From positions 62,001 through 126,000 of the forward strand of contig WFMF01000299.1 in assembly GCA_011033025.1 (NCBI GenBank): a stretch of 64,000 nucleotides of DNA, read 5' to 3'. Of this stretch, positions 3,397 to 57,759 are shown piece by piece. The DNA comes from Beroe forskalii (lineage: Eukaryota > Ctenophora > Nuda > Beroida > Beroidae). Position 1 is the stretch's first letter; each line of letters opens with the position of its first letter. A program made the translations under genes and the position numbers. The notes below the pieces were generated by a model. The model was given only the letters and a program-made list of their open reading frames with translations. It was not told the origin of the DNA and made no database searches.

Positions 3397-6300
3397 TCAG
3401 AGGGGGAGGGAAGCAGAGATATGAAGTGGTAGAACAGGGAGTTTAGTCAGAGGGGAGGGAAGCAGAGATATGAAGTGGTAGAACAGGGAGTTTAGTCAGA
3501 GGGGAGGGAAGCAGAGATATGAAGTGGTAGAACAGGGAGTTTAGTCAGAGGGGAGGGAAGCAGATATGAAGTGGTAGAACAGGGAGTTTAGTCAGAGGGG
3601 AGGGAAGCAGAGATATGAAGTGGTAGAACAGGGAGTTTAGTCAGAGGGGAGGGAAGCAGAGATATGAACAGGGAGTTTAGTCAGAGGGGAGGGAAGCAGA
3701 GATATGAAGTGGTAGAACAGGGAGTTTAGTCAGAGGGGAGGGAAGCAGAGATGAAGTGGTAGAACAGGGAGTTTAGTCAGAGGGGGAGGGAAGCAGAGAT
3801 ATGAAGTGGTAGAACAGGAGTTTAGTCAGAGGGGAGGGAAGCAGAGAAGTGGGTAGAACAGGAGTTTAGTCAGGAGGGAGGGAGAGATATTTAAGTAGAA
3901 CAGGGAGTTTAGTCAGAGGGGAGGAAGGGAGATCAGAGCAGGGAGAGAGGAGGAGGCAGAGATATGAAGTGGTAGAACAGGGAGTTTAGTCAGAGGGGAG
4001 GGAAGCAGAGATATGAAGTGGTAGAACAGGGAGTTTAGTCAGAGGGGGAGGGAAGCAGAGATATGAAGTGGTAGAACAGGGAGTTTAGTCAGAGGGGAGG
4101 GAAGCAGAGATAGCGAAGTGGTAGAACAGGGAGTTTAGTCAGAGGGGAGGGAAGCAGAGATATGAAGTGGTAGAACAGGGAGTTTAGTCAGAGGGGAGGG
4201 AAGCAGAGATATGAAGTGGTAGAACAGGGAGTTTAGTCAGAGGGGGAGGGAAGCAGAGATATGAAGTGGTAGAACAGGGAGTTTAGTCAGAGGGGAGGGA
4301 AGCAGAGATATGAAGTGGTAGAACAGGGAGTTTAGTCAGAGGGGAGGGAAGCAGAGATATGAAGTGGGTAGAACAGGGAGTTTAGTCAGAGGGGGAGGGA
4401 AGCAGAGATATGAAGTGGTAGAACAGGGAGTTTAGTCAGAGGGGAGGGAAGCAGATATGAAGTGGTAGAACAGGGAGTTTAAGTCAGGGAGGGAGGGAAG
4501 CAGAGATATGAAGTGGTAGAACAGGGAGTTTAGTCAGAGGGGGAGGGAAGCAGAGATATGAAGTGGTAGAACAGGGAGTTTAGTCAGAGGGGGAGGGAAG
4601 CAGAGATATGAAGTGGTAGAACAGGGAGTTTAGTCAGAGGGGAGGGAAGCAGAGATATGAAGTGGTAGAACAGGAGTTTAGTCAGAGGGGGAGGGAAGCA
4701 GAGATATGAAGTGGTAGAACAGGGAGTTTAGTCAGAGGGGAGGGAAGCAGAGATATGAAGTGGTAGAACAGGGAGTTTAGTCAGAGGGGAGGGAAGCAGA
4801 GATATGAAGTGGTAGAACAGGGAGTTTAGTCAGAGGGGAGGGAAGCAGAGATATGAAGTGGTAGAACAGGGAGTTTAGTCAGAGGGGAGGGAAGCAGAGA
4901 TATGAAGTGGTAGAACAGGGAGTTTAGTCAGAGGGGGAGGGAAGCAGAGATATGAAGTGGTAGAACAGGGAGTTTAGTCAGAGGGGGAGGGAAGCAGAGA
5001 TATGAAGTGGTAGAACAGGGAGTTTAGTCAGAGGGGAGGGAAGCAGAGATATGAAGTGGTAGAACAGGAGTTTAGTCAGAGGGGAGGAAGCAGAGATATG
5101 AAGTGGTAGAACAGGGAGTTTAGTCAGAGGGGGAGGAAGCAGAGATATGAAGTGGTAGAACAGGGAGTTTAGTCAGAGGGGAGGGAAGCAGAGATATGAA
5201 GTGGTAGAACAGGGAGTTTAGTCAGAGGGGGAGGGAAGCAGAGATATGGCAGAAACAGGGAGTTTAGTCAGAACAGGGAAGAGATATGAGGGGAGGAAGT
5301 GAGGGGGAGGAATATATGAAGTGGTAGAACAGGGAGTTTAGTCAGAGGGGAGGGAAGCAGAGATATGAAGTGGTAGAACAGGGAGTTTAGTCAGAGGGGA
5401 GGGAAGCAGAGATATGAAGTGGTAGAACAGGAGTTTAGTCAGAGGGGGAGGGAAGCAGAGATATGAAGTGGTAGAACAGGGAGTTTAGTCAGAGGGGAGG
5501 GAAGCAGAGATATGAAGTGGTAGAACAGGGAGTTTAGTCAGAGGGGGAGGGAAGCAGAGATATGAAGTGGTAGAACAGGGAGTTTAGTCAGAGGGGAAGC
5601 AGAGATATGAAGTAGAACAGGGAGTAGGCAGAACAGGGAGTTTAGTCAGAGGGGGAGGGAAGCAGAGATATGAAGTGGTAGAACAGGGAGTTTAGTCAGA
5701 GGGGAGGGAAGCAGAGATATGAAGTGGTAGAACAGGGAGTTTAGTCAGAGGGGAGGGAAGCAGAGATATGAAGTGGTAGAACAGGGAGTTTAGTCAGAGG
5801 GGAGGAAGCAGAGATACGAACAGAAGTGGTAGAACAGGGAGTTTAGTCAGAGGGGGAGGGAAGCAGAGATATGAAGTGGTAGAACAGGGAGTTTAGTCAG
5901 AGGGGGAGGGAAGCAGAGAAGTGGTAGAACAGGGAGTTTAACAGAGGGGAGGGAAGCAGAGATATGAAGTGGTAGAACAGGGAGTTTACCAGAGGGGAGG
6001 GAAGCAGAGATATGAAGTGGTAGAACAGGGAGTTTAGTCAGAGGGGAGGGAAGCAGAGATATGAAGTGGTAGAACAGGGAGTTTAGAGGGGGAGGGAAGC
6101 AGAGATGAAGTGGTAGAACAGGGAGTTTAGTCAGAGGGGAGGGCAGAGATATGAAGTGGTAGAACAGGGAGTTTAGTCAGAGGGGGAGGAAGCAGAGATA
6201 CGAAGTGGTAGAACAGGGAGTTTAGTCAGAGGGGAGGGAAGCAGAGATGAAGTGGCAGAACAGGAGTTTAGTTAGAGGGGGAGGGAAGCAGAGATATGAA

Positions 6301-9107
6301 GTGGTAGAACAGGAGTTTAGTCAGAGGGAGGGAAGCAGAGATATGAAGTGGTAGAACAGGGAGTTTAGTCAGAGGGGGGAGGGAAGCAGAGATATGAAGT
6401 GGTAGAACAGGGAGTTTAGTCAGAGGGGGAGGGAAGCAGAGATATGAAGTGGTAGAACAGGAGTTTAGTCAGAGGGGAGGGAAGCAGAGATATGAAGTGG
6501 TAGAACAGGGAGTTTAATCAGGGAGGGAAACAGAGAGATGAAGTGGAACAGGAGTTTAGTCAGAGGGGAGGGAAGCAGAGATATGAAGTGTGGTAGAACA
6601 GGAGTTTAGTCAGAGGGGAGGGAAGCAGAGATATGAAGTGGTAGAACAGGGAGTTTAAGTCAGAGGGGAGGGAAGCAGAGATATGAATGGTAAACAGGAG
6701 TGAGGGAGGGAGAACAGGGGAGTTTAGTCAGAGGGGAGGGAAGCAGAGATATGAAGTGGTAGAACAGGGAGTTTAGTCAGAGGGGAGGGAAGCAGAGATA
6801 TGAAGTGGTAGAACAGGGAGTTTAGTCAGAGGGGAGGGAAGCAGAGATATATGAAGTGGTAGAACAGGGAGTTTAGTCAGAGGGGAGGGAAGCAGAGATA
6901 TGAAGTGGCAGAACAGGAGTTTACCGAGGGGGAGGGAAGCAGAGATATGAAGTGGTAGAACAGGGAGTTTAGTCAGAGGAGGGAAGCAGAGATATGAAGT
7001 GGTAGAACAGGGAGTTTAGTCAGAGGGGGAGGGAAGCAGAGATATGAAGTGGTAGAACAGGGAGTTTACCGAGGGGAGGGAAGCAGCAGAACAGGGAGTT
7101 TAGGAGGGGAGGGAAGCAGAGATATGAAGTGGTAGAACAGGGAGTTTAATGGCAGAACAGGGGAGGGGGAAGCAGATATGAAGTGGTAGAACAGGGAGTT
7201 TAGTCAGAGGGGAGGGAAGCAGAGATATGAAGTGGTAGAACAGGGAGTTTAGTCAGAGGGGAGGGAAGCAGAGATATGAAGTGGTAGAACAGGGAGTTTA
7301 GTCAGAGGGGAGGGAAGCAGAGATATGAAGTGGTAGAACAGGGAGTTTAGTCAGAGGGGAGGGAAGGAGATATGAAGTAGGGAGTTTAGTCAGAGGGGAG
7401 GGAAGCAGAGATATGAAGTGGTAGAACAGGGAGTTTAGTCAGAGGGGGAGGGAAGCAGAGATATGAAGTGGTAGAACAGGGAGTTTAGTCAGAGGGGGAG
7501 GGAAGCAGAGATATGAAGTGGTAGAACAGGGAGTTTAGTCAGAGGGGGAGGGAAGCAGAGATATGAAGTGGTAGAACAGGGAGTTTAGTCAGAGGGGGAG
7601 GGAAGCAGAGATAATATGAAGTGGTAGAACAGGGAGTTTAGTCAGAGGGGGAGGGAAGCAGAGATATGAAGTGGTAGAACAGGGAGTTTAGTCAGAGGGG
7701 AGGAAGCAGAGATATGAAGTGGTAGAACAGGGAGTTTAGAGTCAGAGGGGGAGGGAAGCAGAGATATGAAGTGGTAGAACAGGGAGTTTAGTCAGAGGGG
7801 GAGGGAAGCAGAGATATGAAGTGGTAGAACAGGGAGTTTAGTCAGAGGGGAGGGAAGCAGAGATATGAAGTGGTAGAACAGGGAGTTTAGTCAGAGAGAT
7901 AGGGGAGGGAAGCAGAGATATGAAGTGGTAGAACAGGGAGTTTAGTCAGAGGGGGAGGGAAGCAGAGATATGAAGTGGTAGAACAGGGAGTTTAGTCAGA
8001 GGGGGAGGGAAGCAGAGATATGAAGTGGTAGAACAGGGAGTTTAGTCAGAGGGGGAGGGAAGCAGAGATATGAAGTGGTAGAACAGGGAGTTTAGTCAGA
8101 GGGGGAGGGAAGCAGAGATATGAAGTGGTAGAACAGGGAGTTTAGTCAGAGGGGGAGGGAAGCAGAGATATGAAGTGGTAGAACAGGGAGTTTAGTGAGT
8201 CAGAGGGGAGGGAAGCAGAGATATGAAGTGGTAGAACAGGGAGTTTAGTCAGAGGGGAGGGAAGCAGAGATATGAAGTGGTAGAACAGGGAGTTTAGTCA
8301 GAGGGGAGGGAAGCAGAGATATGAAGTGGTAGAACAGGGAGTTTAGTCAGAGGGGAGGGAAGCAGAGATATGAAGTGGTAGAACAGGGAGTTTAGTCAGA
8401 GGGGAGGGAAGCAGAGATATGAAGTGGTAGAACAGGAGTTTAGTCAGAGGGGAGGGAAGCAGAGATATGAAGTGGTAGAACAGGGAGTTTAGTCAGAGGG
8501 GAGGGAAGCAGAGATATGAAGTGGTAGAACAGGGAGTTTAGTCAGAGGGGGAGGGAAGCAGAGATATGAAGTGGTAGAACAGGGAGTTTAGTCAGTCAGA
8601 GATATGAAGGGTAGAACAGGGAGTTTAGTCAGAGGGGGAGGGAAGCAGAGATATGAAGTGGTAGAACAGGGAGTTTAGTCAGAGGGGGAGGGAAGCAGAG
8701 ATATGAAGTGGTAGAACAGGGAGTTTAGTCAGAGGGGGAGGGAAGCAGAGAAGTGGTAGAACAGGGAGTTTAGTCAGAGGGGGAGGGAAGCAGAGATATG
8801 AAGTGGTAGAACAGGGAGTTTAGTCAGAGGGGGAGGGAAGCAGAGATATGAAGTGGTAGAACAGGGAGTTTAGTCAGAGGGGAGGGAAGCAGAGAGATAT
8901 GCAGAGGGAGTTTAGCAGAGAGAGAAGGGTAGAACAGGGAGTTTAGTCAGAGGGGAGGGAAGCAGAGATATGAAGTGGTAGAACAGGGAGTTTAGTCAGA
9001 GGGGAGGGAAGCAGAGATGAAGTGGTAGAACAGGGAGTTTAGTCAGAGGGGAGGAAGCAGAGATATGAAGTGGTAGAACAGGGAGTTTAGTCAGAGGGGA
9101 GGGAAGC
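3350..9107 (+). repeat. 49-50-bp minisatellite seeded by the GPCR stop-codon region
   Basis: About 115 head-to-tail copies of a unit containing AAGCAGAGATATGAAGTGG, TAGAACAGGGAGTTTAGTC and AGAGGGGAGGG. Units alternate between 49 and 50 bp through four or five G's. The first unit is the coding end of the GPCR pseudogene (KQRYEVVEQGV plus stop) with about ten bases of 3' flank. Many units carry small deletions (for example near 3870-3960, 5270-5320, 6530-6720 and 8880-8940), and clean blocks alternate with degraded ones. The array ends sharply at about 9107. Confidence 0.97.
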
Positions 9108-20900: not shown

Positions 20901-23900
20901 CAGTATACTAATACAGGAACATCAGTCGCACTAGAATTGTGCCGGCAGGCGCAATTCTAGTTGAATTGCGCATAAGTCACAGCCTTTGCAAATGAAATTT
21001 GGCAGTTAAAATCGATATTAAGTCTTATGGCAGATGGCTCAAGCCAAGACCTTTTCAAAGTGATCTGAATTTTCCAGCAATACTCTATTTAATTTCTCTA
21101 TTAAATTTCTACTTACCACGATTCAGATTCCAATTCAGTTTAAACACGTTCTTCCAGGTTGACTAATGCCTAAAATCATCTATTCTATCTTTCAGATTTA
21201 CAGCCCATCTATGACGAAGAATTGGTTGGTTTAGCTGTAGATCCAGATGATCCGGAGCCAGTATTTGGTGGTGATGAGGACCCTGACCATGATAGAGACT
21301 TCATTCTAGGAGGTGATGAGGATACAGACAATGATAGAGACTTCATTCTAGGAGGTGATGATGATACAGACAATGATAGAGACTTCATTCTAGGAGGTGA
21401 TGATGATACAGACAATGATAGAGACTTCATTCTAGGTGGTGATGATGATCCTGACAATGATAGAGACTTCATTCTAGGAGGTGATGGGGATACAGACAAT
21501 GATAGAGACTTCATTCTAGGAGGTGATGAGGATCCTGACAATGATAGAGACTTCATTCTAGGAGGTGATGAGGATCCTGACCATGATAGAGACTTCATTC
21601 TAGGAGGTGATGAGGATCCTGACCATGATAGAGACTTCATTCTAGGAGGTGATGATGGTGATACAATGATAGAGACTTCATTCTAGGTGGTGATGATGAT
21701 ACAGACAATGATAGAGACTTCATTCTAGACAATGAGGTGATGATGATACACCAGACAATGATAGAGACTTCATTCTAGGAGGTGATGGGGATACAGACAA
21801 TGATAGAGACTTCATTCTAGGAGGTGATGAGGATACAGACAATGATAGAGACTTCATTCTAGGAGGTGATGAGGATCCTGACCATGATAGAGACTTCATT
21901 CTAGGAGGTGATGATGATACAGACAATGATAGAGACTTCATTCTAGGAGGTGATGATGATACAGACAATGATAGAGACTTCATTCTAGGAGGTGATGAGG
22001 ATCCTGACAATGATAGAGACTTCATTCTAGGAGGTGATGATGATACAGACAATGATAGAGACTTCATTCTAGGAGGTGATGGGGATACAGACAATGATAG
22101 AGACTTCATTCTAGGAGGTGATGATGATACAGACAATGATAGAGACTTCATTCTAGGAGGTGATGATGATACAGACAATGATAGAGACTTCATTCTAGGA
22201 GGTGATGATGATACAGACAATGATAGAGACTTCATTCTAGGAGGTGATGATGATCCTGACAATGATAGAGACTTCATTCTAGGAGGTGATGATGATCCTG
22301 ACAATGATAGAGACTTCATTCTAGGAGGTGATGATGATCCTGACCATGATAGAGACTTCATTCTAGGAGGTGATGGGGACCCAGATCACAGATCAGAAGA
22401 TGGCCTTGATGGCGATGAAGAAGAAGAATTAAAACAAATAATGGCTGACTATCCCGGGAAATTCGGTAAGCAGTTGTATACTATATTTTTCCTTATAAGT
22501 TATTCGGTAAGCAGTTGTTTTGCCTTATTTGTAGTGTGTTATCATTCATGATCTCAAGAGCGGCAATGGATATTAAATAAATCAAATCCTTTTCTAATTC
22601 ATTGAAGCAATGAACCGAGTAATGTTTCGTCAGACAGGAGAGGACCGAAAGTTGGTGTCTTTAGACCCAAATTCGGGCTGAGCCCAGCAAAGCAGCAGAA
22701 GCACGATAAGACAGTGATCGTAGAGCCGTGTGAAACGTCTCACGAAGCCAAAGTGCAACCCTTCAATGAGATCTGCAGGAACCCCTCAGATGGAACAACA
22801 GCTCTGTTTGGAGCAAAGACTTTGGAGTGCCCGTCCTTCAAAGTCGTACAGCAGTCCTGCGACTTCCAACTCAGGGCTTACAATGAGTAAAAAACTGCAA
22901 AATTAGCTCGATTCAGTGTTTGAAAATGTGTCTACTACTGTATCTGTATCCAATGGGGTGAGTGCAGCCTCTCACTACTGTATCTGTATCCAATGGGGTG
23001 AGTGCAGCCTCTCACTACTGTATCTGTATCCAATGGGGTGATCTGTGCAGCCTCTCACTACTGTATCTGTATCCAATGGGGTGAGTGCAGCCTCTCACTA
23101 CTGTATCTGTATCCAATGGGGTGAGTGCAGCCTCTCACTACTGTATCTGTATCCAATGGGGTGAGTGCAGCCTCTCACTACTGTATCTGTATCCAATGGG
23201 GTGAGTGCAGCCTCTCACTACTGTATCTGTATCCAATGGGGTGAGTGCAGCCTCTCACTACTGTATCTGTATCCAATGGGGTGAGTGCAGCCTCTCTCTA
23301 CTGTATCTGTATCCAATGGGGTGAGTGCAGCCTCTCACTACTGTATCTGTATCCAATGGGGTGAGTGCAGCCTCTCACTACTGTATCTGTATCAATGGGG
23401 TGAGTGCAGCCTCTCACTACTGTATCTGTATCCAATGGGGTGAGTGCAGCCTCTCACTACTGTATCTGTATCCAATGGGGTGAGTGCAGCCTCTCACTAC
23501 TGTATCTGTATCCAATGGGGTGAGTGCAGCCTCTCTGTACTGTGTCATCTGTATCCAATGGGGTGAGTGCAGCCTCTCACTACTGTATCTGTATCCAATG
23601 GGGTGAGTGCAGCCTCTCACTACTGTATCTGTATCCAATGGGGTGAGTGCAGCCTCTCACTACTGTATCTGTATCCAATGGGGGGAGTGCAGCCTCTCAC
23701 TACTGTATCTGTATCCAATGGGGTGAGTGCAGCCTCTCACTACTGTATCTGTATCCAATGGGGTGAGTGCAGCCTCTCACTACTGTATCTGTATCCAATG
23801 GGGTGAGTGCAGCCTCTCACTACTGTATCTGTATCCAATGGGGTGAGTGCAGCCTCTCACTACTGTATCTGTATCCAATGGGGTGAGTGCAGCCTCTCAC

Positions 23901-26900
23901 TACTGTATCTGTATCCAATGGGGTGAGTGCAGCCTCTCACTACTGTATCTGTATCCAATGGGGTGAGTGCAGCCTCTCAACTGTATCTGTATCAATGGGG
24001 TGAGTGCAGCCTCTCACTACTGTATCTGTATCCAATGGGGTGGTAGCTCACTCTACCACACCAACACCTCAGCCTAACAACCCCAATGTGGTAAGCTCAC
24101 TCTACCACACCAACACACCTCAGCCTAACAACCCCAATGTGGTAAGCTCACTCTACCACACCAACACACCTCAGCCTAACAATCCCAATGTGGTAAGCTC
24201 ACTCTACCACACCAACACACCTTAGCCTAACAACCCCAATGTGGTAAGCTCACTCTACCACACCAACACACCTCAGTCTAACAAACCCAATGTGGTAAGC
24301 TCACTCTACCACACCAACACACCTCATTGTAACAACCCCAATGTGGTAAGCATACTCTACCACACCAACACACCTCAGCCTAACAACCCCAATGTGGTAA
24401 GCTCACTCTACCACACCAACACACCTCAGCCTAACAACCCCAATGTGGTAAGCTCACTCTACCACACCAACACACCTCAGTCTAACAACCCCAATGTGGT
24501 AAGCTCACTCTACCACACCAACACACCTTAGCCTAACAACCCCAATGTGGTAAGCTCACTCTACCACACCAACACACCTCAGTGTAACAACCCCAATGTG
24601 GTAAGCTCACTCTACCACACCAACACACCTCAGCCTAACAACCCCAATGTGGTAAGCTCACTCTACCACACCAACACACCTCAGCCTAACAACCCCAATG
24701 TGGTAAGCTCACTCTACCACACCAACACACCTCAGCCTAACAACCCCAATGTGGTAAGCTCACTCTACCACACCAACACACCTCAGCCTAACAACCCCAA
24801 TGTGGTAAGCTCACTCTACCACACCAACACACCTCAGCCTAACAACCCCAATGTGGTAAGCTCACTCTACCACACCAACACACCTCAGCCTAACAACCCC
24901 AATGTGGTAAGCTCACTCTACCACACCAACACACCTCAGCCTATACCAACCCCAATGTGGTAAGCTCACTCTACCACAACACACCTCAGCCTAACAACCC
25001 CAATGGTAAGCTCACTCTACCACACCAACACACCTCAGCCTAACAACCCCAATGTGGTAAGCTCACTCTACCACACCAACACACCTCAGCCTAACAACCC
25101 CAATGTGGTAACAACCCCAATGTAAAGCTCACTCTACCACACCAACACACCTCAGCCTAACAACCCCAATGTGGTAAGCTCACTCTACCACACCAACACA
25201 CCTCAGCCTAACAACCCCAATGTGGTAAGCTCACTCTACCACACCAACACACCTCAGCCTAACAACCCCAATGTGGTAAGCTCACTCTACCACACCAACA
25301 CACCTCAGCCTAACAACCCCAATGTGGTAAGCTCACTCTACCACACCAACACACCTCAGCCTAACAACCCCAATGTGGTAAGCTCACTCTACCACACCAA
25401 CACACACCTCAGCCTAACAACCCCAATGTGGTAAGCTCACTCTACCACACCAACACACCTCAGCCTAACAACCCCAATGTGGTAAGCTCACTCTACCACA
25501 CCAACACACCTCAGCCTAACAACCCCAATGTGGTAAGCTCACTCTACCACACCAACACACCTCAGCCTAACAACCCCAATGTGGTAAGCTCACTCTACCA
25601 CACCAACACACCTCAGCCTAACAACCCCAATGTGGTAAGCTCACTCTACCACACCAACACACCTCAGCCTAACAACCCCAATGTGGTAAGCTCACTCTAC
25701 CACCAACACACCTCAGCCTAACAACCCCAATGTGGTAAGCTCACTCTACCACACCAACACACCTCAGCCTAACAACCCCAATGTGGTAAGCTCACTCTAC
25801 CACACCAACACACCTCAGCCTAACACAACCCCAATGTGGTACCAACACACCTCACCACACCAACACACCTCAGCCTAACCTCAGCCTAACCCCCCAATGT
25901 GGTAAGCTCACTCTACCACACCAACACACCTCAGCCTAACAACCCCAATGTGGTAAGCTCACTCTACCACACCAACACACCTCAGCCTAACAACCCCAAT
26001 GTGGTAAGCTCACTCTACCACACCAACACACCCCAGCCTCAGCCTAACAACCCCAATGTGGTAAGCTCACTCTACCACACCAACACACCTCAGCCTAACA
26101 ACCCCAATGTGGTAAGCTCACTCTACCATACACCAACACACCTCAGTGTTAACAACCCCAATGTGGTAAGCTCACTCTACCACACCAACACACCTCAGCC
26201 TAACAACCCCAATGTGGTAAGCTCACTCTACCACACCAACACACCTCAGCCTAACAACCCCAATGTGGTAAGCTCACTCTACCACACCAACACACCTCAG
26301 CCTAACAACCCCAATGTGGTAAGCTCACTCTACCACACCAACACACCTCAGCTTAACAACCCCAATGTGGTAAGCTCACTCTACCACACCAACACACCTC
26401 AGCCTAACAACCCCAATGTGGTAAGCTCACTCTACCACACCAACACACCTCAGTCTAACAACCCCAATGTGGTAAGCTCACTCTACCACACCAATACACC
26501 TCAGTCTAATAACCCCAATGTGGTAAGCTCACTCTACCACACCAACACACCTCAGCCTAACAACCCCAATGTGGTAAGCTCACTCTACCACACCAACACA
26601 CCTCAGTGTAACAACCCCAATGTGGTAAGCTCACTCTACCACACCAACACACCTCAGCTCATTGACAGGTGATGACAGGTGATGACAGGGGGAAGGGGTT
26701 CTAAATGCTGACAGATGATGACAGGGGGAAGGGAGGGGGTTTGAACTACGCTGACAGATGATGACAGGGGGTTTGAACTACGCTGACGTCAGCAAGAATA
26801 ACTAATAATCAACTTCCATTCCAGGCTTTGCAGAAGGAAGGAATGAAGCTGTATTATGTCCATTCCTTCGGGGGACCAACACCTTCCTATGACAACTACA

Positions 26901-29900
26901 AACGGTAAGCAACTACAAACGGTAAGCAACTACAAATGGTAAGCAACTACAAACGGTTAGCAACTACAAACGGTAAGCAACTACAAACGGTAAGCAACTA
27001 CAAACGGTAAGCAACTGCAAACGGTAAGCAACTACAAACGGTAAGCAACTACAAACGGTAAGCAACTACAAACGGTAAGCAACTACAAACGGTTAGCAAC
27101 TACAAACGGTAAGCATCTACAAACGGTAAACAACTACAAACGGTAAGCAACTACAAACGGTAAGCAATTACAAACGGTAAGCAACTACAAACGGTAAGCA
27201 ACTACAAACGGTAACTACAAACGGTAACACAAACGGTAAGCAACTACAAACGGTAAGCAACTACAAACGGTAAGCAACTACAAACGGTAAGCAACTACAA
27301 ACGGTAAGCAACTACAAACGGTAAGCAACTACAAACGGTAAGCAACTACAAACGGTAAGCAACTTCTACAAACGGTAAGCAACTACAAACGGTAAGCCAA
27401 CTACAAACGGTAAGCAACTACAAACGGTAAGCAACTACAAACGGTAAGCAACTACAAACAGTAACTACAAACGGTAAGCAACTACAAACGGTAAGCAACT
27501 ACAAACGGTAAGCAACTACAAACGGTAAGCAACTACAAACGGTAAGCAACTACAAACGGTAAGCAACTACAAACGGTAAGCAACTACAAACGGTAAGCAA
27601 CTACAAACGGTAAGCAACTACAAACGGTAAGCAACTACAAACGGTAAGCAACTACAAACGGTAACTACAAACGGTAAGCAACTACAAACGGTAAGCAACT
27701 ACAAACGGTAAGCAACTACAAACGGTAAGCAACTACAAACGGTAAGCAACTACAAACGGTAAGCAACTACACAAACGGTAAGCAACTACAAACGGTAAGC
27801 AACTACAAACGGTAAGCAACTACAAACGGTAAGCAACTACAAACGGTAAGCAACTACAAACGGTAAGCAACTACAAACGGTAAGCAACCTAACGGTAAGC
27901 AACTACAAACGGTAAGCAACTACAAACGGTAAGCAACTACAAACGGTAAGCAACTACAAACGGTAAGCAACTACAAACGGTAAGCAACTACAAACGGTAA
28001 GCAACTACAAACGGTAAGCAACTACAAACGGTAAGCAACTACAAACGGTAAGCAACTACAAACGGTAAGCAACTACAAACGGTAAGCAACTACAAACGGT
28101 AAGCAACTACAAACAGTAACTACAAACGGTAAGCAACTACAAACGGTAAGCAACTACAAACGGTAAGCAACTACAAACGGTAAGCAACTACAAACGGTAA
28201 GCAACTACAAACGGTAAGCAACTACAAACGGTAAGCAACTACAAACGGTAAGCAACTACAAACGGTAAGCAACTACAAACGGTAAGCAACTACAAACGGT
28301 AAGCAACTACAAACGGTAAGCAACTACAAACGGTAAGCAACTACAAACGGTAAGCAACTACAAACGGTAAGCAACTACAAACGGTAAGCAACTACAAACG
28401 GTTAGCAACTACAAACGGTAAGCAACTACAAACGGTAAGCAACTACAAACGGTTAGCAACTACAAACGGTAAGCAACTACAAACGGTAAGCAACTACAAA
28501 CGGTAAGCAACTACAAACGGTAAGCAACTACAAACGGTAAGCAACTACAAACGGTAACTACAAACGGTAAGCAACTACAAACGGTAAGCAACTACAAACG
28601 GTAAGCAACTACAAACGGTAAGCAACTACAAACGGTAAGCAACTACAAACGGTAACTACAAACGGTAAGCAACTACAAACGGTAAGCAACTACAAACGGT
28701 AAGCAACTACAAACGGTAAGCAACTACAAACGGTAAGCAACTACAAACGGTAAGCAACTACAAACGGTAAGCAACTACAAACGGTAAGCAACTACAAACG
28801 GTAAACAAACGGTAAGCAACTACAAACGGTAAGCAACTACAAACGGTAAGCAACTACAAACGGTAAGCAACTACAAACGGTAAGCAACTACAAACGGTAA
28901 GCAACTACAAACGGTAAGCAACTACAAACGGTAAGCAACTACAAACGGTAAACGGTAAGCAACTACAAACGGTAAGCAACTACAAACGACGGTAAGCAAC
29001 TACAAACGGTAAGCAACTGCAAACGGTAAGCAACTACAAACGGTAAGCAACTACAAACGGTAAGCAACTACAAACGGTAAGCAACTACAAACGGTAAGCA
29101 ACTACAAACACAAACGGTAAGCAACTACAAACGGTAAGCAACTACAAACGGTAAGCAACTACAAACGGTAAGCAACTACAAACGGTAAGCAACTACAAAC
29201 GGTAAGCAACTACAAACGGTAAGCAACTACAAACGTACAACGGTAAGCAACTACAAACGGTAAGCAACTACAAACGGTAAGCAACTACAAACGGTAAGCA
29301 ACTACAAACGGTAAGCAACTACAAACGGTAAGCAACTACAAACGGTAAGCAACTACAAACGGTAAGCAACTACAAACGGTAAGCAACTACAAACGGTAAG
29401 CAACTACAAACGGTAAGCAACCTAACGGTAAGCAACTACAAACGGTTAGCAACTACAAACGGTAAGCAACTACAAACGGTAAGCAACTACAAACGGTAAG
29501 CAACTACAAACGGTAAGCAACTACAAACGGTAAGCAACTACAAACGGTAAGCAACTACAAACGGTAAGCAACTACAAACGGTAAGCAACTACAAACGGTT
29601 AGCAACTACAAACGGTAAGCAACTACAAACGGTAAGCAACTGCAAACGGTAAGCAACTGCAAACGGTAAGCAACTACAAACGGTAAGCAACTGCAAACGG
29701 TAAGCAGTTTTACAAAGCTTCTCCCTGGTCACTAAGCTCAGGAGGAAGTCTTTCAATTTTAAGATTTGAAGTTAATTGAAGCTTGTTAAACTGAACGAAC
29801 ATAAAACTAAATGAACATTAAACTAAATGAACATTAAACTAATAATGAATATAAAACTATAAAAGTTAAATACTATCAGGGAGTTTGCAAAGCTAGCCTC

Positions 29901-29970
29901 AGTCCTGGGACCACTCTCAAAGGAAATCATTTGGGACACCACCTACATTAACGAGTACATGCTGTTTTGA
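17731..29970 (+). CDS. secreted SOUL/heme-binding (HEBP-like) protein gene, multi-exon
   Basis: The exons join by GT/AG sites and phase: 17731-17902 (signal peptide), 21196-22465 (acidic repeats), 22634-about 22885, 22917-22957, an exon end inside the 51-bp array, 26825-26904 and 29880-29970. The C-terminal half matches the SOUL/HEBP family: LECPSFKVVQQSCDFQLRAY, then VSTTVSVSNG, then NTPQPNNPNV, then LYYVHSFGG, then KREFAKLASVLG. Family members bind heme or porphyrin. A signal peptide and extra cysteines indicate an extracellular variant. The family core (about 60 residues around the helix and MTAPV-type segment) is missing between 22957 and 24042. The acidic repeat exon carries a net +7 shift, and exon 3 to 4 lacks a clean donor. 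The gene may be functional but misassembled, or a recent pseudogene. Confidence 0.75.
17903..21195 (+). other. SOUL gene intron 1 with dispersed repeats
   Basis: A 3.3-kb intron. Near 19130 and 19290 the word CTTCCTACGGTTTATATT recurs about 160 bp apart beside GGGCGTGGCC-type words. Positions 19600-19685 match the GPCR intron repeat in reverse. A small hairpin built on ACTAGAATTG and CAATTCTAGT lies near 20930. No exon was recognised inside. Confidence 0.5.
21196..22465 (+). CDS. SOUL gene exon 2: acidic repeat domain
   Basis: The acceptor TTTCAG ends at 21195. The joined frame reads N, LQPIYDEELVGLAVDPDDPE, then about 26 copies of a 14-residue unit of the type GGDDDTDNDRDFIL, then EDGLDGDEEEELKQIMADYP and GKF, ending TTCG|GTAAGC in phase 1. 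The Asp/Asn spacing (DxDxDND) resembles acidic calcium-binding loops, which is inference only. One unit is 41 bp (about 21643-21683) and another 50 bp (about 21727-21775). The frame is therefore lost for two units and then stays one base off relative to the first part; the last part is the one in frame with exon 3. Confidence 0.7.
21267..22376 (+). repeat. 42-bp coding minisatellite
   Basis: About 26 units marked by AATGATAGAGACTTCATTCT and AGGAGGTGATGATGATAC. All are 42 bp except one of 41 and one of 50. Variants alternate between GATACAGACAAT, GATCCTGACAAT and GATCCTGACCAT, so subtypes are interspersed. This looks like repeated in-frame unequal exchange. Confidence 0.95.
22461..22518 (+). 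repeat. single duplication of the exon 2 splice donor
   Basis: The 17-mer ATTCGGTAAGCAGTTGT, which spans the exon 2/intron junction (22461-22477), recurs exactly at 22502-22518, 41 bp downstream. The second copy is a second complete 5' splice site. Confidence 0.9.
22634..22885 (+). CDS. SOUL gene exon 3: Cys-rich start of the SOUL domain
   Basis: After the acceptor CGTCAG (ending 22633), the phase-1 join gives DRRGPKVGVFRPKFGLSP, then IVEPCETSHEAKVQPFNEIC, then LFGAKTLECPSFKVV and QQSCDFQLRAYN. The segment from LECPSFKVV to FQLRAY aligns with the first strand of SOUL domains (CPxFxVV...YELREY in relatives). Four cysteines fit an extracellular form. The end is uncertain. The frame would stop at TAA 22888, and family spacing is best if AATG joins TG at 22917, but no GT sits there. 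An RR pair near the start could be a processing site. Confidence 0.6.
22917..22957 (+). CDS. SOUL gene exon 4 remnant ending at the first array
   Basis: After TTCAG (ending 22916) the sequence reads FENVSTTVSVSNG and ends AATGGG|GTGAGT. VSTTV is the conserved WVSTTV-like strand of SOUL domains, at the right distance after exon 3. The apparent intron before it is only about 30 bp, shorter than animal introns normally are, so sequence has probably been lost here. The last ~24 coding bases plus the donor are the start of the 40-bp array. Confidence 0.5.
22932..24041 (+). repeat. 40-bp minisatellite carrying exon end plus 5' splice site
   Basis: About 28 copies of a unit with CTACTGTATCTGTATCCAAT, then GGG|GTGAGTGCAGCCTCTCA. 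The first unit is the true exon 4 end and donor, so every unit carries a usable-looking GTGAGT site. Forty is not a multiple of three, yet all three plus-strand frames of the unit are open. Small deletions occur near 23392 and 23988. Confidence 0.95.
24042..26656 (+). repeat. 51-bp minisatellite carrying exon end plus 5' splice site
   Basis: About 51 copies of a unit reading AGCTCACTCTACCACACC, then AACACACCTCAGCCTAAC, then AACCCCAATGTG|GTA. It encodes SSLYHTNTPQPNNPNVV repeatedly. TPQPNNPNV is the SOUL segment just before the exon at 26825 and GTG|GTAAGC is its donor, in phase 0 as the next exon requires. At 51 bp (17 codons) the frame stays open across units, broken only by indels near 24945, 25010, 25110, 25400 and 25830. 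Which copy is the true exon end cannot be told. Confidence 0.95.
26657..26824 (+). other. intron remainder with short repeats
   Basis: Short repeats of GATGACAGG(GGG) and GGTTTGAACTACGCTGAC, then a TTCCATTCCAG acceptor ending at 26824. Confidence 0.6.
26825..26904 (+). CDS. SOUL gene exon: conserved FxxSFGG segment
   Basis: Begins in phase 0 after CCATTCCAG. It reads ALQKEGMKLYYVHSFGG and PTPSYDNYK, then CG in phase 2, ending ACAAACG|GTAAGC. LYYVHSFGG corresponds to the V(F/Y)VRSF(G/D)GF signature of SOUL/HEBP proteins. The other two frames contain stops. The last 11 exon bases plus the donor are the unit of the array that follows. Confidence 0.8.
26894..29704 (+). repeat. 17-bp minisatellite: about 165 tandem 5' splice sites
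   Basis: The unit AACTACAAACG|GTAAGC is exactly the 3' end of the preceding exon joined to its intron start. About 165 copies follow, nearly all identical; variants include GGTTAGC, AACTGCAAACG and occasional skipped or partial units. Use of any downstream donor would insert an in-frame TAA immediately (CGG TAA), so only the first copy gives a full-length protein. Confidence 0.97.
29880..29970 (+). CDS. SOUL gene last exon
   Basis: The acceptor TACTATCAG ends at 29879. The phase-2 join completes CGG and reads EFAKLASVLG, then PLSKEIIWDTTYINEYMLF and TGA at 29968-29970. Family members show a similar helix (EAAKLAxxLG) and a Y..GYN strand here. The usual final NxxNEVW strand is absent, so the protein is about a dozen residues short at the C-terminus. 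Confidence 0.75.
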
Positions 29971-53429: not shown

Positions 53430-54330
53430 TAAAAGAATTGTTAAGTAAAAGAATTGTTTCATTAATCTCCATTTTCAATAAATACAATCACACTCGGACA
53501 CAAAAATACGAATGTAAACGCTAGGAAGCTACAGCATATGGCCTGTAGCTAGACAAGCTATTAACAGTAGGTAATAAGATCTCTGTCATTATATTATCAT
53601 AATTATAACCAAAACCATGGTTTCGCGCTCCAAGTGCACATTTTACCAATGTTTGAAAAACGAGAAATTTTAAACAATTTGTGGAGGAAAAACAAATTAA
53701 CACATTTTGAAAAAATGATGGAATTGAATCATCAATGCACGTGCAACCTTTATTTTTAAATGGGAGAGGGAAATTTAAGTGCTTGCCGAAGTTGGAGAAA
53801 ACGAGCGCAATTCTTGTTTACATTACCCTACACTCAGCTTCCGGCCCCATGGATACTAATGCAGGCTAATTTTGGTCATGTTCCTGTGGTACCATTATGC
53901 GGAAGACACGTTATCTGATGAACTGGTAAAAGATAAGTAGATAGTAGATACATGTACCCATTATAAACATCTCTTTTCTCGAACGAAAAGGTTCTCGAAA
54001 TTTCTAACCCTGGTCCTTCAGCCATAGGATACATTTTTGTAAACAGTATGGTGCTTGGAGAGGGAAGGTGCAGGCGTAAAGCCTCGAAGGGGAAGGTCTG
54101 AATGGAAATTAAGCATTGGATATCGATTAAGCTCCTTTGAAAACCATTATGCACACGTCCTGTATGTACTGTGGACAAGAAATCAGAAATTACAAAATTT
54201 TTGGGTTATTTTTGGCAAACTTTGGCAAATTTTGGCAAACTTAGGCAAACTATGGCAAACTTTGGCAAACACTTTTTTGGCAAACTCCAAAAAAAGTGGA
54301 ACCTTTTCCCTCCCCCCCCCCCCCCCCATA
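53430..54330. other. intergenic with TTGGCAAAC repeat
   Basis: Only AT-rich sequence, plus a (T)TTGGCAAA tandem at 54205-54290 shared with 42890-42950 and a C-run at about 54313-54327. Confidence 0.45.
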
Positions 54331-55063
54331 TTGGCAGAACATCAAGTTCACATGATTTGTCAGATAGTTCTTGGGCCAGTCCTAATAGTTCATCAATAGA
54401 GACTTCTCGAAAATTTGCAAACTTGACATTTTCCTGTTGACCTTTTCTATCCTTGCTAGGATCTGAACATTCAAAATCTGCTGCTTCTTTCTCTATATTA
54501 GAGTAGATGTCTTTGATCTTTTGGTCAAAATATGTTTTGAAATTTTCAGCTAAAAGCTCATCATTGCTGCAGTGTGGTAGCTTGTTTGTACCATATTCCT
54601 TGTCCAAGAGATGATTCAGAACTCTATATGTAGCTTTCTGGTCTCCTCTACTGGAGCTCAATTTTTCATTGAAGTAAAGGTTCCTTTCCTTATTTATTAT
54701 GATGGCCTTGTCTACACATTTTTCATTGTAAATTTCTCGGGCTTCTTGATCTTCCTTATTTTTGTAGAATTTTCTTTGGGCTTTTTTCATGTCTGTCCTG
54801 GCTCTTCTACATCTATTGTTCCACCAAGGAGATTGGTTGATTTTAAAATCCCGGGATGTGTATGGCACATGTTTATCCAAAGCATCCTTTACAGTTTTTT
54901 GGTATAAAACAACAGCTTCATCAACAGATTTAGGTTCTGCCATGCTTAAGGAACAAAACAGGTCATGCCTAAATTCATCAACATCCATTTTCTTGAACTC
55001 CCGTATTTGTCTTGTCTCGATGTTCTTGACATTATTGATTGGAGGAGAAACAAATCTCATCAT
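54331..55063 (-). pseudogene. CR1-like LINE, endonuclease-to-RT linker
   Basis: The minus-strand open frame carries INQSPWWNNRCRRARTDMKK, RNLYFNEKLSSSRGDQKATY, then LDKEYGTNKLPHCSNDELL and SDKSCELDVLP. This is the spacer between endonuclease and reverse transcriptase in CR1-type elements (PWWN...RRAR, then a KSCELDxLP block just before the polymerase). It breaks at LP where a C-run and the TTGGCAAAC repeat begin. No catalytic motif is present. Confidence 0.75.
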
Positions 55064-55064
55064 T

Positions 55065-55436
55065 TTAATCCCTAGAACATACCTGGAAAGTTTCAGGACA
55101 ATTCTCCCCCCCCCCTGCCCCCTTAACAGATTCCGACACCGACTCTTTCACTGCCTTGCTGATGGTATCTACTGACTGGTCCTTACTCTTCACGAGGTCT
55201 GCCTGCATCTTGATAACTTGATCTTGTAGGTTGATCATACTCCTAGACAGCTCTTCATTGGAAGGCCTGATCAACTCTTTCTGCATCACGATGTGACTCC
55301 ATGCATCAGTGACCATTTTCGCAAGCACACCCTTTCTTTCACGATTGATGTACGACTGCAACTTTGATTTCACGTAAGTCTCGTCAGGCTCGAAGCACAG
55401 ACTGTGCCAATCGTCCTCATCATTTTCCCGATCCAT
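55065..55436 (-). pseudogene. LINE ORF1-like N-terminus
   Basis: A 123-codon minus-strand frame from ATG 55436: MDRENDEDDWHSLCFEPDET, then a helical coiled-coil-like stretch with LQDQVIKMQADLVKSKDQ, then a G-rich break. It lies directly upstream of the linker fragment in the same orientation, with the whole endonuclease missing between. This suggests an internally deleted copy. ORF1 identity is inferred from position and composition. Confidence 0.5.
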
Positions 55437-55899
55437 AACGAGGAAGCTTCACCCGCATTACAGGGTGAGGGACTTCGAACGGTCATTATACATTAATTTA
55501 ATATGTTCACTTGTATATTTCTCAAACTGGCAAACTCAACAAGTCGCGATAAGCAGCTAATTTGCAACGTATAAGAAAAGAGATAAGTGCAAATGATAAG
55601 AGATTAGTGCGAGTGATTTGAGTTTTTACATTATATTATGACTTTACCAGATTTATTTATTACTGTAATTTTAAATAAATAAACTGCTATAGCTATAAAT
55701 ATTAATTATTTGTTTGACAGTTTGACTAATCATTTGTTTGACTACTAACTTGCTGGCTTCAACACAGTATATAGCAATATCAGTCTTGCAGTTATATTTC
55801 AACTGATTCAGTGATTCCATCTATCTGTAACTGCCTATTTCTCAATTGTGACAACAAGACTAAACAAAATAGCAAGAGATGCTTTAGAAGTTAATTAAC
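55437..55899. other. intergenic or intronic, nothing recognised
   Basis: AT-rich sequence with short repeats (GATAAGAGATTAGTGC-like words, and TTTGTTTGAC words). Probably an intron of the minus-strand SH3 gene. Confidence 0.4.
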
Positions 55900-55992
55900 C
55901 TCAACTTGGTTCCTAAGCTCGACTTTCTCATTCTTCTTCACAGATACAGTGTTATGGCCTATAGCATCAAAGTCATGTAACACCAAGTACAC
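55900..55992 (-). CDS. SH3-domain gene, exon with first half of SH3
   Basis: On the minus strand, CCCCTTCCAG is followed by VYLVLHDFDAIGHNTVSV and KKNEKVELRNQVE, then a GAG|GTTAAT donor. Both ends are phase 0. The pattern ALYDFxAxxxxELSVKKxDxVEL is the RT-loop half of an SH3 domain (peptide-binding adaptor module), with LHDFDA matching LYDFDA. It joins in phase to the exon at 60828-60967. The second half of the SH3 fold was not found downstream. Confidence 0.6.
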
Positions 55993-56091
55993 CTGGAAGG
56001 GGATAATCATTTCAAAGTTCGACAGTACAAAGGTACAATAACTCAATAAAAGTATACGACAGGAACAAAATATAATCTCAACCTACTCACC

Positions 56092-56735
56092 CGAGGGGGG
56101 GGGGATCAGGGACTATTAGTGCAAGACACGAGGCTGGGTGGCTGGTGTTTGGGCCTAGGCGAAATCACTTAGTCCCCTGTACTAACTTTAGTCCACTGTA
56201 CTAACCTTTTGATCACCTTATGGTAAAATCATACTCACTTAGTCCAAATGACATAATATGTCATTTGGACTAAGTGAGTATGATTTTACCATAAGGTGAT
56301 CAAAAGGTTAGTACAGTGGACTATTTGGGCACTTTTTTGCCAAATGACATCATAATTTTGGGATGGATCCCCACAAGTAGTATGAAATTTCAGTTACAGT
56401 AGTAGTACATGGGACAAACTGCTCATTTTGGGATGGGTCCCTACAAAACATGACAAATTTCAGTTAGTACATGGGACAATCTGCAGCGTTTCATGCTCCT
56501 CTAGGGGTGGGTCCCTTCAAAAAGTGGAAAGCATCAGTTAGTACAAGGGACAATCTGCCAATTGGATAGGTTTCTATGTTAATATTGGGGTGAGTCTCTA
56601 CAAAATGATGTCAAATATCACTTAGTGCATGCTTACATGGGACTATCTGAAGGGGTGGTAGGTGGTATTTCAAAATTGGGCAAAAAGTCACTTGGTACCC
56701 CTCGTGTCTTGCACTTAATCCATGACCCTCCCCCG
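56092..56735. mobile_element. 644-bp MITE with perfect internal palindrome
   Basis: The inverted ends share AGTGCAAGACACGAGG behind a G-rich tip, and ACTCACC flanks both sides (56085-56091 and 56736-56742), a 7-bp target duplication. The interior holds diverged ~60-bp units with AGTACATGGGACAATCTG. It sits in the intron between the two exons of the minus-strand SH3 gene. Confidence 0.75.
56189..56323. repeat. perfect inverted repeat, 66-bp arms, 3-nt spacer
   Basis: The left arm starts TAGTCCACTGTACTAACC and ends CAAATGACAT. After AAT, the right arm is its exact reverse complement ending at 56323. No mismatch was found on reading. Confidence 0.96.
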
Positions 56736-57053
56736 ACTCACCTTCAGATTAAGTGAGGTAGTGCCGCTGCTAGTACGTTGTGCACAGTTTTGAGAAATGC
56801 AGCAATTTTGCAATGATTTTTTATTCAAAACTTTAAGATTATAATAAAATATGAAAAAATAAAATTTTCAATTTCATAATAATTTAAGGGTTATCCAAAA
56901 CGAAGATATGCACAGCAAGCTGTGCCAACATACTTTGGTCCCAGAAAATATAAAGCAATCAAAATATATGTATATAGAAAATCATATGGGGTATCCCCCC
57001 CCCCAACCAGACCCTACCCTAAAATTTTCAAATTTCAAATTAAAAAAAAGATT
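56736..57053. other. intronic or intergenic, nothing recognised
   Basis: AT-rich, with a C-run at about 56996-57004 next to the presumed 3' end of the LINE fragment. Confidence 0.4.
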
Positions 57054-57759
57054 CTAACCACCATCATCAGATATCTGTGACCAGTCATCTTGCCAGGCAG
57101 CAATCTCTGACCTGACAAGTGACTTAAGATGTTCTTTCAATTTTATTTTGAATTGAGATTGTTCAGATGTATCTCGAATTTCAAAAGGCAATGCATTCCA
57201 AGTGCGATGCCCTCTATAAAAGAACGATTTGCGAAGATTGTTGCAGCTATTTGATCCAGGTGTTAGGCTAGAATTAATAAATGAAAGGTTATCTAGGTGT
57301 CTAGATCGTAGCCTGCTGTCAGTGCTGCTGTAATGCTCAAGATATTCTGGCATGGATATAGGGATCAGATCATAGAATATCTTATGGAACAGAGTCATTT
57401 CGGCAAGAATAAATCTTGCCGAAAAAATGTTCAAGTGGCAAGAAATTGAGTTCTAGGTATTTTCTTATGTATTCCTCATTTAATTACAATAAGACTGATT
57501 TTCTCATGTATTCCTCATTTAATTACAATAAGACTGATTTTCTTATGTATTCCTCATTTAATTACAATAAGACTGATTTTTTTTCCTCCTTAAGAATCCA
57601 TTTTACACATTTTTTCTGAAAGTTTTCAAATTTTTTGATGGCATTGGGAGCCCTTGGCCCCCAGACAGGCGAGCAGTGCTCGAACTGGCTTCTAACCAAA
57701 GTAAGAAACAAAATTCTTTTACGTTGTACATCACTTACAAAATAGCAAGTGCGTTTCAA
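57054..57759 (-). pseudogene. CR1-like LINE 3' end
   Basis: The minus strand reads TLVRSQFEHCSPVWGPRAP, NFQKKCVKWILKEE, then after a tandem insertion YLELNFLPLEHFF, DLIPISMPEYLEHYSS, and FYRGHRTWNALPFEIRD to FKIKLKEHLKSLV and a stop. This is the conserved C-terminus of CR1-type reverse transcriptases (RSxLEY.SxVW...RG...WNxLPxEIR). A ~39-bp segment is present three times at about 57460-57580 and each copy carries a stop codon. Confidence 0.75.

What the first reader, a model, noticed from the sequence alone, without database searches (positions are those of the whole stretch)
22922..29970. Three exon ends of one SOUL gene have each become the unit of a long minisatellite that contains the 5' splice site
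Seen directly: the 40-bp unit contains CCAATGGG|GTGAGT, the 51-bp unit CCCCAATGTG|GTAAGC, and the 17-bp unit CTACAAACG|GTAAGC. In each case the sequence left of the bar is the reading frame of a SOUL-domain exon (VSTTVSVSNG, TPQPNNPNV, PSYDNYK) and the next exon joins in the right phase for the two that can be tested. Three independent expansions at the same kind of site in one gene is unlikely by chance. It points to a mechanism acting at exon/intron junctions (replication slippage, R-loops, or selection for redundant donors). I recall a similar class in amphioxus called mirage minisatellites, so the phenomenon may be known. The scale here (up to ~165 donors) still looks exceptional.
Basis: partly seen in the sequence, partly recalled or inferred. 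Interest (0 to 1): 0.9.

Follow-up and report, generated by a model that had tools for sequence, protein, structure and literature searches.

The report
Minisatellites grown from exon ends
In a comb jelly, the ends of several exons, together with the signal that starts each intron, have been copied head to tail up to about 166 times, probably harmlessly because the first copy stays attached to its exon; the same kind of thing is known from amphioxus on a smaller scale.

Summary
The three arrays are real: 40 bp x 27.7, 51 bp x about 51 and 17 bp x 166, each unit with a GT donor after SOUL-type coding sequence. Mitochondrial COX1 (100% identity) points to the comb jelly Beroe forskalii. Two unrelated genes show the same thing: a rhodopsin-type receptor (46 bp x 92) and a C392 gene (52 bp x 3). 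In the receptor gene only the first of 82 exact donors gives an open frame (450 residues, seven exons).

'Mirage' duplications of exon-intron boundaries are described in amphioxus, so this is a known kind in a new phylum, at higher copy number than the globin cases read.

A donor-directed mechanism is not supported: tandem GGTAAG triples are no commoner genome-wide (4,827) than their mirror image (5,976), and junction duplication was found at 5 of 20 donors, about the rate expected for random positions (3.5). Acceptors (0 of 21) and exon points (1 of 40) look spared, but the sample is small.

I favour random slippage in a repeat-rich genome, tolerated at donors because the first donor stays beside its exon. 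The SOUL gene itself looks damaged: about 54 residues are missing where two arrays abut. No RNA was available; splicing is inferred.

The parts
21196..22465 (+). Upstream exon of the SOUL-type gene; most of it is a 42-bp coding repeat (21270-22375, x 26.2) with a frame break near 21640-21740; donor AAATTCG|GTAAGCAG
   Evidence: TRF; frames. The 5' edge (acceptor at 21195) was placed by eye only.
22461..22518 (+). Two-copy donor duplication ATTCG|GTAAGCAGTTGT, 41 bp apart: possibly a nascent array
22634..22886 (+). Next exon, ends ...SCDFQLRAYN; joins the upstream exon in phase 1
   Evidence: open join; profile positions 16 onward
22887..22916 (+). 30-nt GT...AG gap between exons; phase does not fit by one base
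   Evidence: read
22917..22957 (+). Coding end FENVSTTVSVSNG| before the first donor of the 40-bp array
22934..24042 (+). 40-bp array x 27.7; unit = 24 coding bases + 16 intron bases, donor GGG|GTGAGT
24040..26658 (+). 51-bp array, about 51 copies, donor GTG|GTAAGC; unit is 17 codons (VSSLYHTNTPQPNNPNV) and aligns to SOUL coding sequence over nearly its full length
   Evidence: broken by stops and frame changes
26825..26904 (+). Exon ALQKEGMKLYYVHSFGGPTPSYDNYK(R)
26893..29706 (+). 17-bp array x 166, donor ACG|GTAAGC; unit = about 12 exon + 5 intron bases
29880..29970 (+). Last exon (K)REFAKLASVLGPLSKEIIWDTTYINEYMLF*

Best explanation
These are 'mirage'-type minisatellites. In a genome where short tandem duplications arise everywhere, probably by microhomology slippage (inferred), some span an exon end and the first bases of its intron. 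Such a duplication leaves the original donor in front, still joined to its own exon and transcribed first. If the spliceosome commits to that first donor (inferred), the whole array is intron and is free to grow, and turnover keeps its copies alike. A duplication across an acceptor puts the new copies before the true site, and one inside an exon changes the protein, so both would be removed by selection (inferred). The donor in the unit is then a by-product of tolerance, neither the cause of growth nor a reserve. Shown: the arrays, the units, the open joins, and that copy 2 onward gives no open product in the receptor gene.
For: Tandem repeat is 27.7% of the contig, and 119 non-overlapping arrays lie in 274 kb. 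No excess of donor-hexamer arrays over the mirror image. 5 of 20 donors, 0 of 21 acceptors and 1 of 40 exon points have a nearby copy; donor v acceptor p = 0.02. In the intact-looking receptor gene the first donor gives 450 open residues with a full 7tm_1 match (E 3.8e-44); of 82 exact donors only the first is open. In the 17-bp array copy 1 reads to the last exon's stop and copies 2 and 3 meet TAA at once; in the C392 gene copy 2 gives a stop. Short shared bases at array edges (CA for 17 bp, AAAA for 46 bp; read).
Against: The sparing of acceptors and exons is weak: 13 of 40 intron points are duplicated, but 8 of those 13 lie behind donors that themselves have copies; with independent points (5 of 30) the tests give p = 0.07 and 0.08. 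Without the SOUL gene donors are 2 of 16 v acceptors 0 of 18, p = 0.21. One ABC-transporter acceptor has degenerate copies before it by eye (14 of 20), and amphioxus has acceptor mirages. The 17-bp donor GT is less variable than the rest in both arrays (0 of 336 v 0.75%; 1 of 208 v 3.3%). No RNA.
Confidence: 0.5

Rival explanations
1. Something at donors promotes duplication (for example R-loops at transcribed junctions), so that arrays are seeded there preferentially.
For: Several arrays in one gene; 3 of 5 arrays have units with only 5-6 intron bases, ending about where the donor consensus ends; donors 5 of 20 v 3.5 expected from random positions.
Against: Mirror-image control exceeds the donor pattern; 7 of 119 array units score 8 or more for a donor v 9 of 119 mirrored units (matrix recalled); donors do not exceed intron points.
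Confidence: 0.15
2. The SOUL gene is a decaying pseudogene or a misassembled locus, and its arrays grew or survived because nothing depends on it any more.
For: Profile positions 51-104 missing where the two arrays fuse inside their donors, block not found on the contig; frame break in the upstream exon; a 30-nt gap out of phase; a relative 53 kb upstream keeps a 104-copy 17-bp array and the last exon with a TAG, without the other exons.
Against: The other joins are open; long-read errors in repeats could cause the frame breaks; the receptor gene has the same kind of array and an open frame. It explains this locus, not the phenomenon.
Confidence: 0.45
3. Intron gain: at least the 51-bp unit began as purely exonic sequence with a chance GTAAGC, was duplicated, and the array became an intron, as proposed for amphioxus globins.
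For: The unit is 17 codons and aligns to SOUL coding sequence nearly end to end; C494 has no intron there and three other SOUL genes match in one open frame. Model described in PMC3087553 (passages).
Against: The join NPNV|ALQKEG has an ordinary acceptor and is gapless, as an old intron would be; intron loss in the relatives is equally possible; the original upstream exon is missing.
Confidence: 0.2
4. Redundant donors are selected because they strengthen splicing.
For: Donor GT little changed in the 17-bp arrays.
Against: The array without an upstream exon keeps it too; the receptor array shows no such restraint (6 of 184 v 4.25%); later donors lead to stops.
Confidence: 0.05

Closest known systems
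'Mirages' of amphioxus (globins BflGb6 and BflGb9, Adh3, PGBD5, troponin C)
   Same: Minisatellite-like tandem duplication of an exon-intron boundary carrying the splice signal, in several genes of one genome (passages of PMC3087553; PMC3902484).
   Different: Different phylum. Up to 166 copies here v 3-6 copies in BflGb6 and 108-bp x 3 in PGBD5; copy numbers for Adh3 were not seen. Amphioxus has both donor and acceptor cases and RNA evidence of normal splicing; here donors prevail in a small sample and there is no RNA.
Intron gain by tandem genomic duplication (Rogers model; potato RdRp case PMC4974935, seen in a search listing only)
   Same: Tandem duplication of a segment carrying a GT proto-splice site.
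   Different: That model makes one new intron from one duplication; here long arrays sit in introns that may be old.
High tandem-repeat content of ctenophore genomes (Hormiphora: TRF 14 Mb, 13% of genome; passages of PMC8527503)
   Same: Background of abundant tandem repeats.
   Different: The passages seen do not speak of repeats at splice junctions.

Membership tests
Mirage minisatellite | Tandem repeat spans an exon-intron boundary | tested here: met
   Receptor 46 bp, C392 52 bp and SOUL 17 bp. For the 40-bp and 51-bp SOUL arrays the boundary is likely but not secured.
Mirage minisatellite | Copies carry the splice signal | tested here: met
   25, 47, 150 and 79 exact donor motifs in the 40-, 51-, 17- and 46-bp arrays.
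Mirage minisatellite | Regular splicing is not disturbed | not testable with these tools
   No RNA. Only indirect: in the receptor gene only donor 1 of 82 leaves an open frame.
Mirage minisatellite | Length instability | tested here: inconclusive
   17-bp array x 166 in the window v x 104 in the relative; two loci, not two alleles.
SOUL domain gene | Complete SOUL domain | tested here: not met
   Pfam match in two stretches; profile positions 51-104 and the C-terminal end unmatched, block not found on C357. Derived from a SOUL gene, not shown to encode a whole domain.
Intron gain by tandem duplication | Intron position absent from relatives and intron made of duplicated exon | tested here: inconclusive
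   NPNV| has no counterpart in C494; no outgroup gene structures available.

The most novel reading that the evidence does not exclude
Minisatellite growth at splice junctions is polar: donor-spanning duplications survive and expand to a hundred copies because the first-transcribed donor wins, while acceptor-spanning ones are purged. Exonic seeds such as the 51-bp unit can in this way turn exon sequence into new introns. The Beroe genome would then be a natural experiment on how the spliceosome chooses among many identical 5' splice sites.
Probability: 0.25. Interest if true: 0.75.

Novelty: new member of a known kind. Interest (0 to 1): 0.55.

Why it matters
It takes a curiosity known from amphioxus to an early-branching animal phylum and shows it in an otherwise open receptor gene with about 90 near-identical donors. 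That makes a basic question testable: when many identical 5' splice sites lie side by side, is the first one always used? It also gives material for intron gain by duplication, and warns that gene models and short-read assemblies can break or collapse at such junctions.

Tried and rejected
Donor-motif enrichment: expected, not found, neither locally (7 of 119 arrays at donor score 8 or more v 9 of 119 mirrored units; matrix recalled) nor genome-wide. Of the seven, the best scores of the 51-bp and receptor rows lie on the other strand and are not the donors discussed; the 40-bp array is not in that table because it overlaps the 51-bp row by 3 bp. Counts are matches, not arrays, and long arrays dominate them.

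Genome-wide tests of AGGTAAGT triples and TTTCAG (acceptor) triples did not complete, so acceptors have no genome-wide test.

Junction test: junctions were placed by hand in six gene loci. The last-exon acceptor matched two places and the relative's copy (C357:38870) was scored. The 51-bp donor was not scored (its upstream exon is missing). The decayed series at receptor donor B3 (TRF C357:209037-209132) scored 12 of 20 and counts as negative. My first comparison with intron points (13 of 40; p = 0.77, 0.002 and 0.0007) used points inside the same arrays; one search replaces it (5 of 30; p = 0.49, 0.07 and 0.08), though two of those five still lie in the 40-bp array.

SOUL relatives: the joined window peptide found no protein. 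Scanning the contig for the missing block found nothing convincing (only the first 40 tblastn rows by position were printed, the profile scan covered the whole contig).

Print: 'mirage minisatellites' 0 papers; amphioxus + minisatellite + intron 3 papers; minisatellite + donor splice site + tandem duplication + intron 0; mirage + minisatellite 8; ctenophore + tandem repeat + intron 27, 15 listed; Beroe genome papers 16, 12 listed (passages of PMC11184263); intron gain 72, 15 listed; minisatellite + splice donor + intron + tandem 9; ctenophore + minisatellite 2, judged unrelated from the listing. The founding Adh paper (PMC117041) is not held and is cited only through PMC3087553.
Full report
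What is there. TRF reports a 40-bp array x 27.7 (22934-24042), a 51-bp array from 24040 to 26658 and a 17-bp array x 166.1 (26893-29706). Each unit contains coding-like sequence followed by a donor: CCAATGGG|GTGAGT, CCCCAATGTG|GTAAGC, CTACAAACG|GTAAGC. Copies are nearly identical: 4, 24 and 19 substitutions (and 10, 53 and 74 inserted or deleted bases) in 27.7, 50.3 and 168.1 aligned copies. The same gene has an exon built largely of a 42-bp repeat and a two-copy donor duplication 41 bp apart.

Whose genome. The window is contig C357:62001-126000 of a 216-Mb assembly in 1,134 contigs. The COX1 gene of that assembly is 100% identical over the 500-residue query to a record named Beroe forskalii. 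It is a comb jelly.

The SOUL gene. Joined exon peptides match SOUL (E 1.7e-11, two stretches). Joins exon 1-2 (phase 1), NPNV|ALQKEG (phase 0) and NYKR|EFAK (phase 2, through to a stop) are open. The next gap, 30 nt, is out of phase by one (read). A profile from four other Beroe SOUL genes aligns at positions 16-50 and 105-157 of 194; positions 51-104 are missing where the 40- and 51-bp arrays fuse, and the block was not found elsewhere on the contig. The fused sequence shows the two units meeting inside their donors at GTG. A deletion by exchange between the arrays, or an assembly join, would both explain this; neither can be settled here. A relative 53 kb upstream keeps a 104-copy 17-bp array and the last exon (with TAG), has no other exon that the search found, and holds an inserted element.

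It is not only this gene. In the 274 kb examined two further genes carry donor arrays. A rhodopsin-type receptor gene has a 46-bp unit x 92 (40 exon bases + GTTGGT). Splicing at the first copy gives 450 residues without a stop over seven exons (starting inside the first; the start codon was not determined) and a match to all but the first position of 7tm_1 (E 3.8e-44). Of 82 exact donors only the first keeps the frame open. A gene on C392 has three 52-bp copies and a decayed fourth at an exon ending TATTTAG|GTGAGT; copy 2 would give a stop. In the 17-bp SOUL array copy 1 reads to the last exon's stop and the printed copies 2 and 3 meet TAA at once. By eye, a second receptor donor has a decayed 32-bp series, and one ABC-transporter acceptor has degenerate copies before it. 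Against these, a neighbouring receptor gene with three donors and three acceptors has no such array.

Is it more than chance at donors? The arrays are not chance. Their position at donors is less special than it looks. Tandem repeats cover 27.7% of C357 and 1.9 to 24.4% of eight other pieces. Genome-wide, GGTAAG triples spaced 8-38 bases number 4,827 against 5,976 for the mirror-image pattern. In a uniform self-similarity test around hand-placed junctions of six gene loci, 5 of 20 donors (three of them in the SOUL gene, one being the two-copy case), 0 of 21 acceptors and 1 of 40 exon points have a copy within 200 bp; random positions score 23% in C357 and 7.7% in three other loci; 0 of 600 shuffles do. 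From the random rates 3.5 of the 20 donors are expected. Intron points score 13 of 40, but 8 of those 13 lie behind donors that have copies themselves; with points of the other 15 donors the figure is 5 of 30, and the tests read: donors v introns p = 0.49, acceptors v introns p = 0.07, exons v introns p = 0.08. Donors v acceptors give p = 0.02, and without the SOUL gene 2 of 16 v 0 of 18, p = 0.21. So donors behave like non-coding sequence; the sparing of acceptors is a lead, not a result.

How it most likely works. Duplications arise throughout this genome. The 17-bp and 46-bp arrays show short shared bases (CA; AAAA) between the exon and the sequence after the last copy, as slippage would leave (read). 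When a duplication spans a donor, the old donor stays in front; if it is used, the array is intron and may expand. When a duplication spans an acceptor, the extra acceptors come before the true one; in an exon it changes the protein. This explains why donors look like introns and why later donors are useless. It does not explain why three units contain only 5-6 intron bases.

Selection for spare donors. In the receptor array donor GT changes (6 of 184) equal the rest (4.25%). In the two 17-bp arrays the GT changes less than the rest (0 of 336 v 0.75%; 1 of 208 v 3.3%), but the second of these has no upstream exon to serve. I do not think donors are kept for use.

Known class. Passages of PMC3087553 describe amphioxus globin 'mirages' (6 and 3 repeat units of 150-160 bp in the two BflGb6 haplotypes, at both kinds of boundary), Adh3 cases with 10-72-bp units and somatic instability, and an intron-gain model. 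In the searches listed under Tried and rejected I saw no report for ctenophores. The claim is a new phylum, larger arrays than those read about, and a tolerance explanation; not a new class.

Noticed in passing
L030 (C357:30001-40000), 5487-8815: An element with long inverted repeats (arms up to 368 nt, 97% complementary) lies in the relative's intron; one reading frame (GKSYTMNTIIDRCQAEG...) looks like a helicase by eye.
   Followed up: partly
window 21270-22375: Coding 42-bp repeat (GDDDTDNDRDFILG x 26) in the exon upstream of the arrays, with a frame break near 21640-21740.
   Followed up: partly
window 29706-29760: Sequence after the 17-bp array (TTTTACAAAGCTTCTCCCTGG...) resembles the start of the last exon (GAGTTTGCAAAGCTAGCC...) by eye: perhaps a decayed exon copy.
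   Followed up: no
L050, minus strand, about 2180-2370: In the second of two tandem ABC-transporter gene copies the acceptor before AAAACGGACCAG is preceded by degenerate copies of itself; the first copy lacks them. Possible acceptor mirage.
   Followed up: partly
C357:210559-211232: An intron array of 33/69-bp units runs up to a receptor acceptor (CCCGGCAG|GTTCGAG) without including exon sequence.
   Followed up: no
G000:C2:294389-294964: 30-bp array GGTAAGCCAGACAACATCTACACTTACTGC from the pattern search; a multiple of three that could be read as a coding repeat (GKPDNIYTYC).
   Followed up: no
window 54206-57452: Reading frames on the minus strand that look like remains of a LINE-type retrotransposon by eye; Pfam gave nothing above cut-off for the first.
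   Followed up: no
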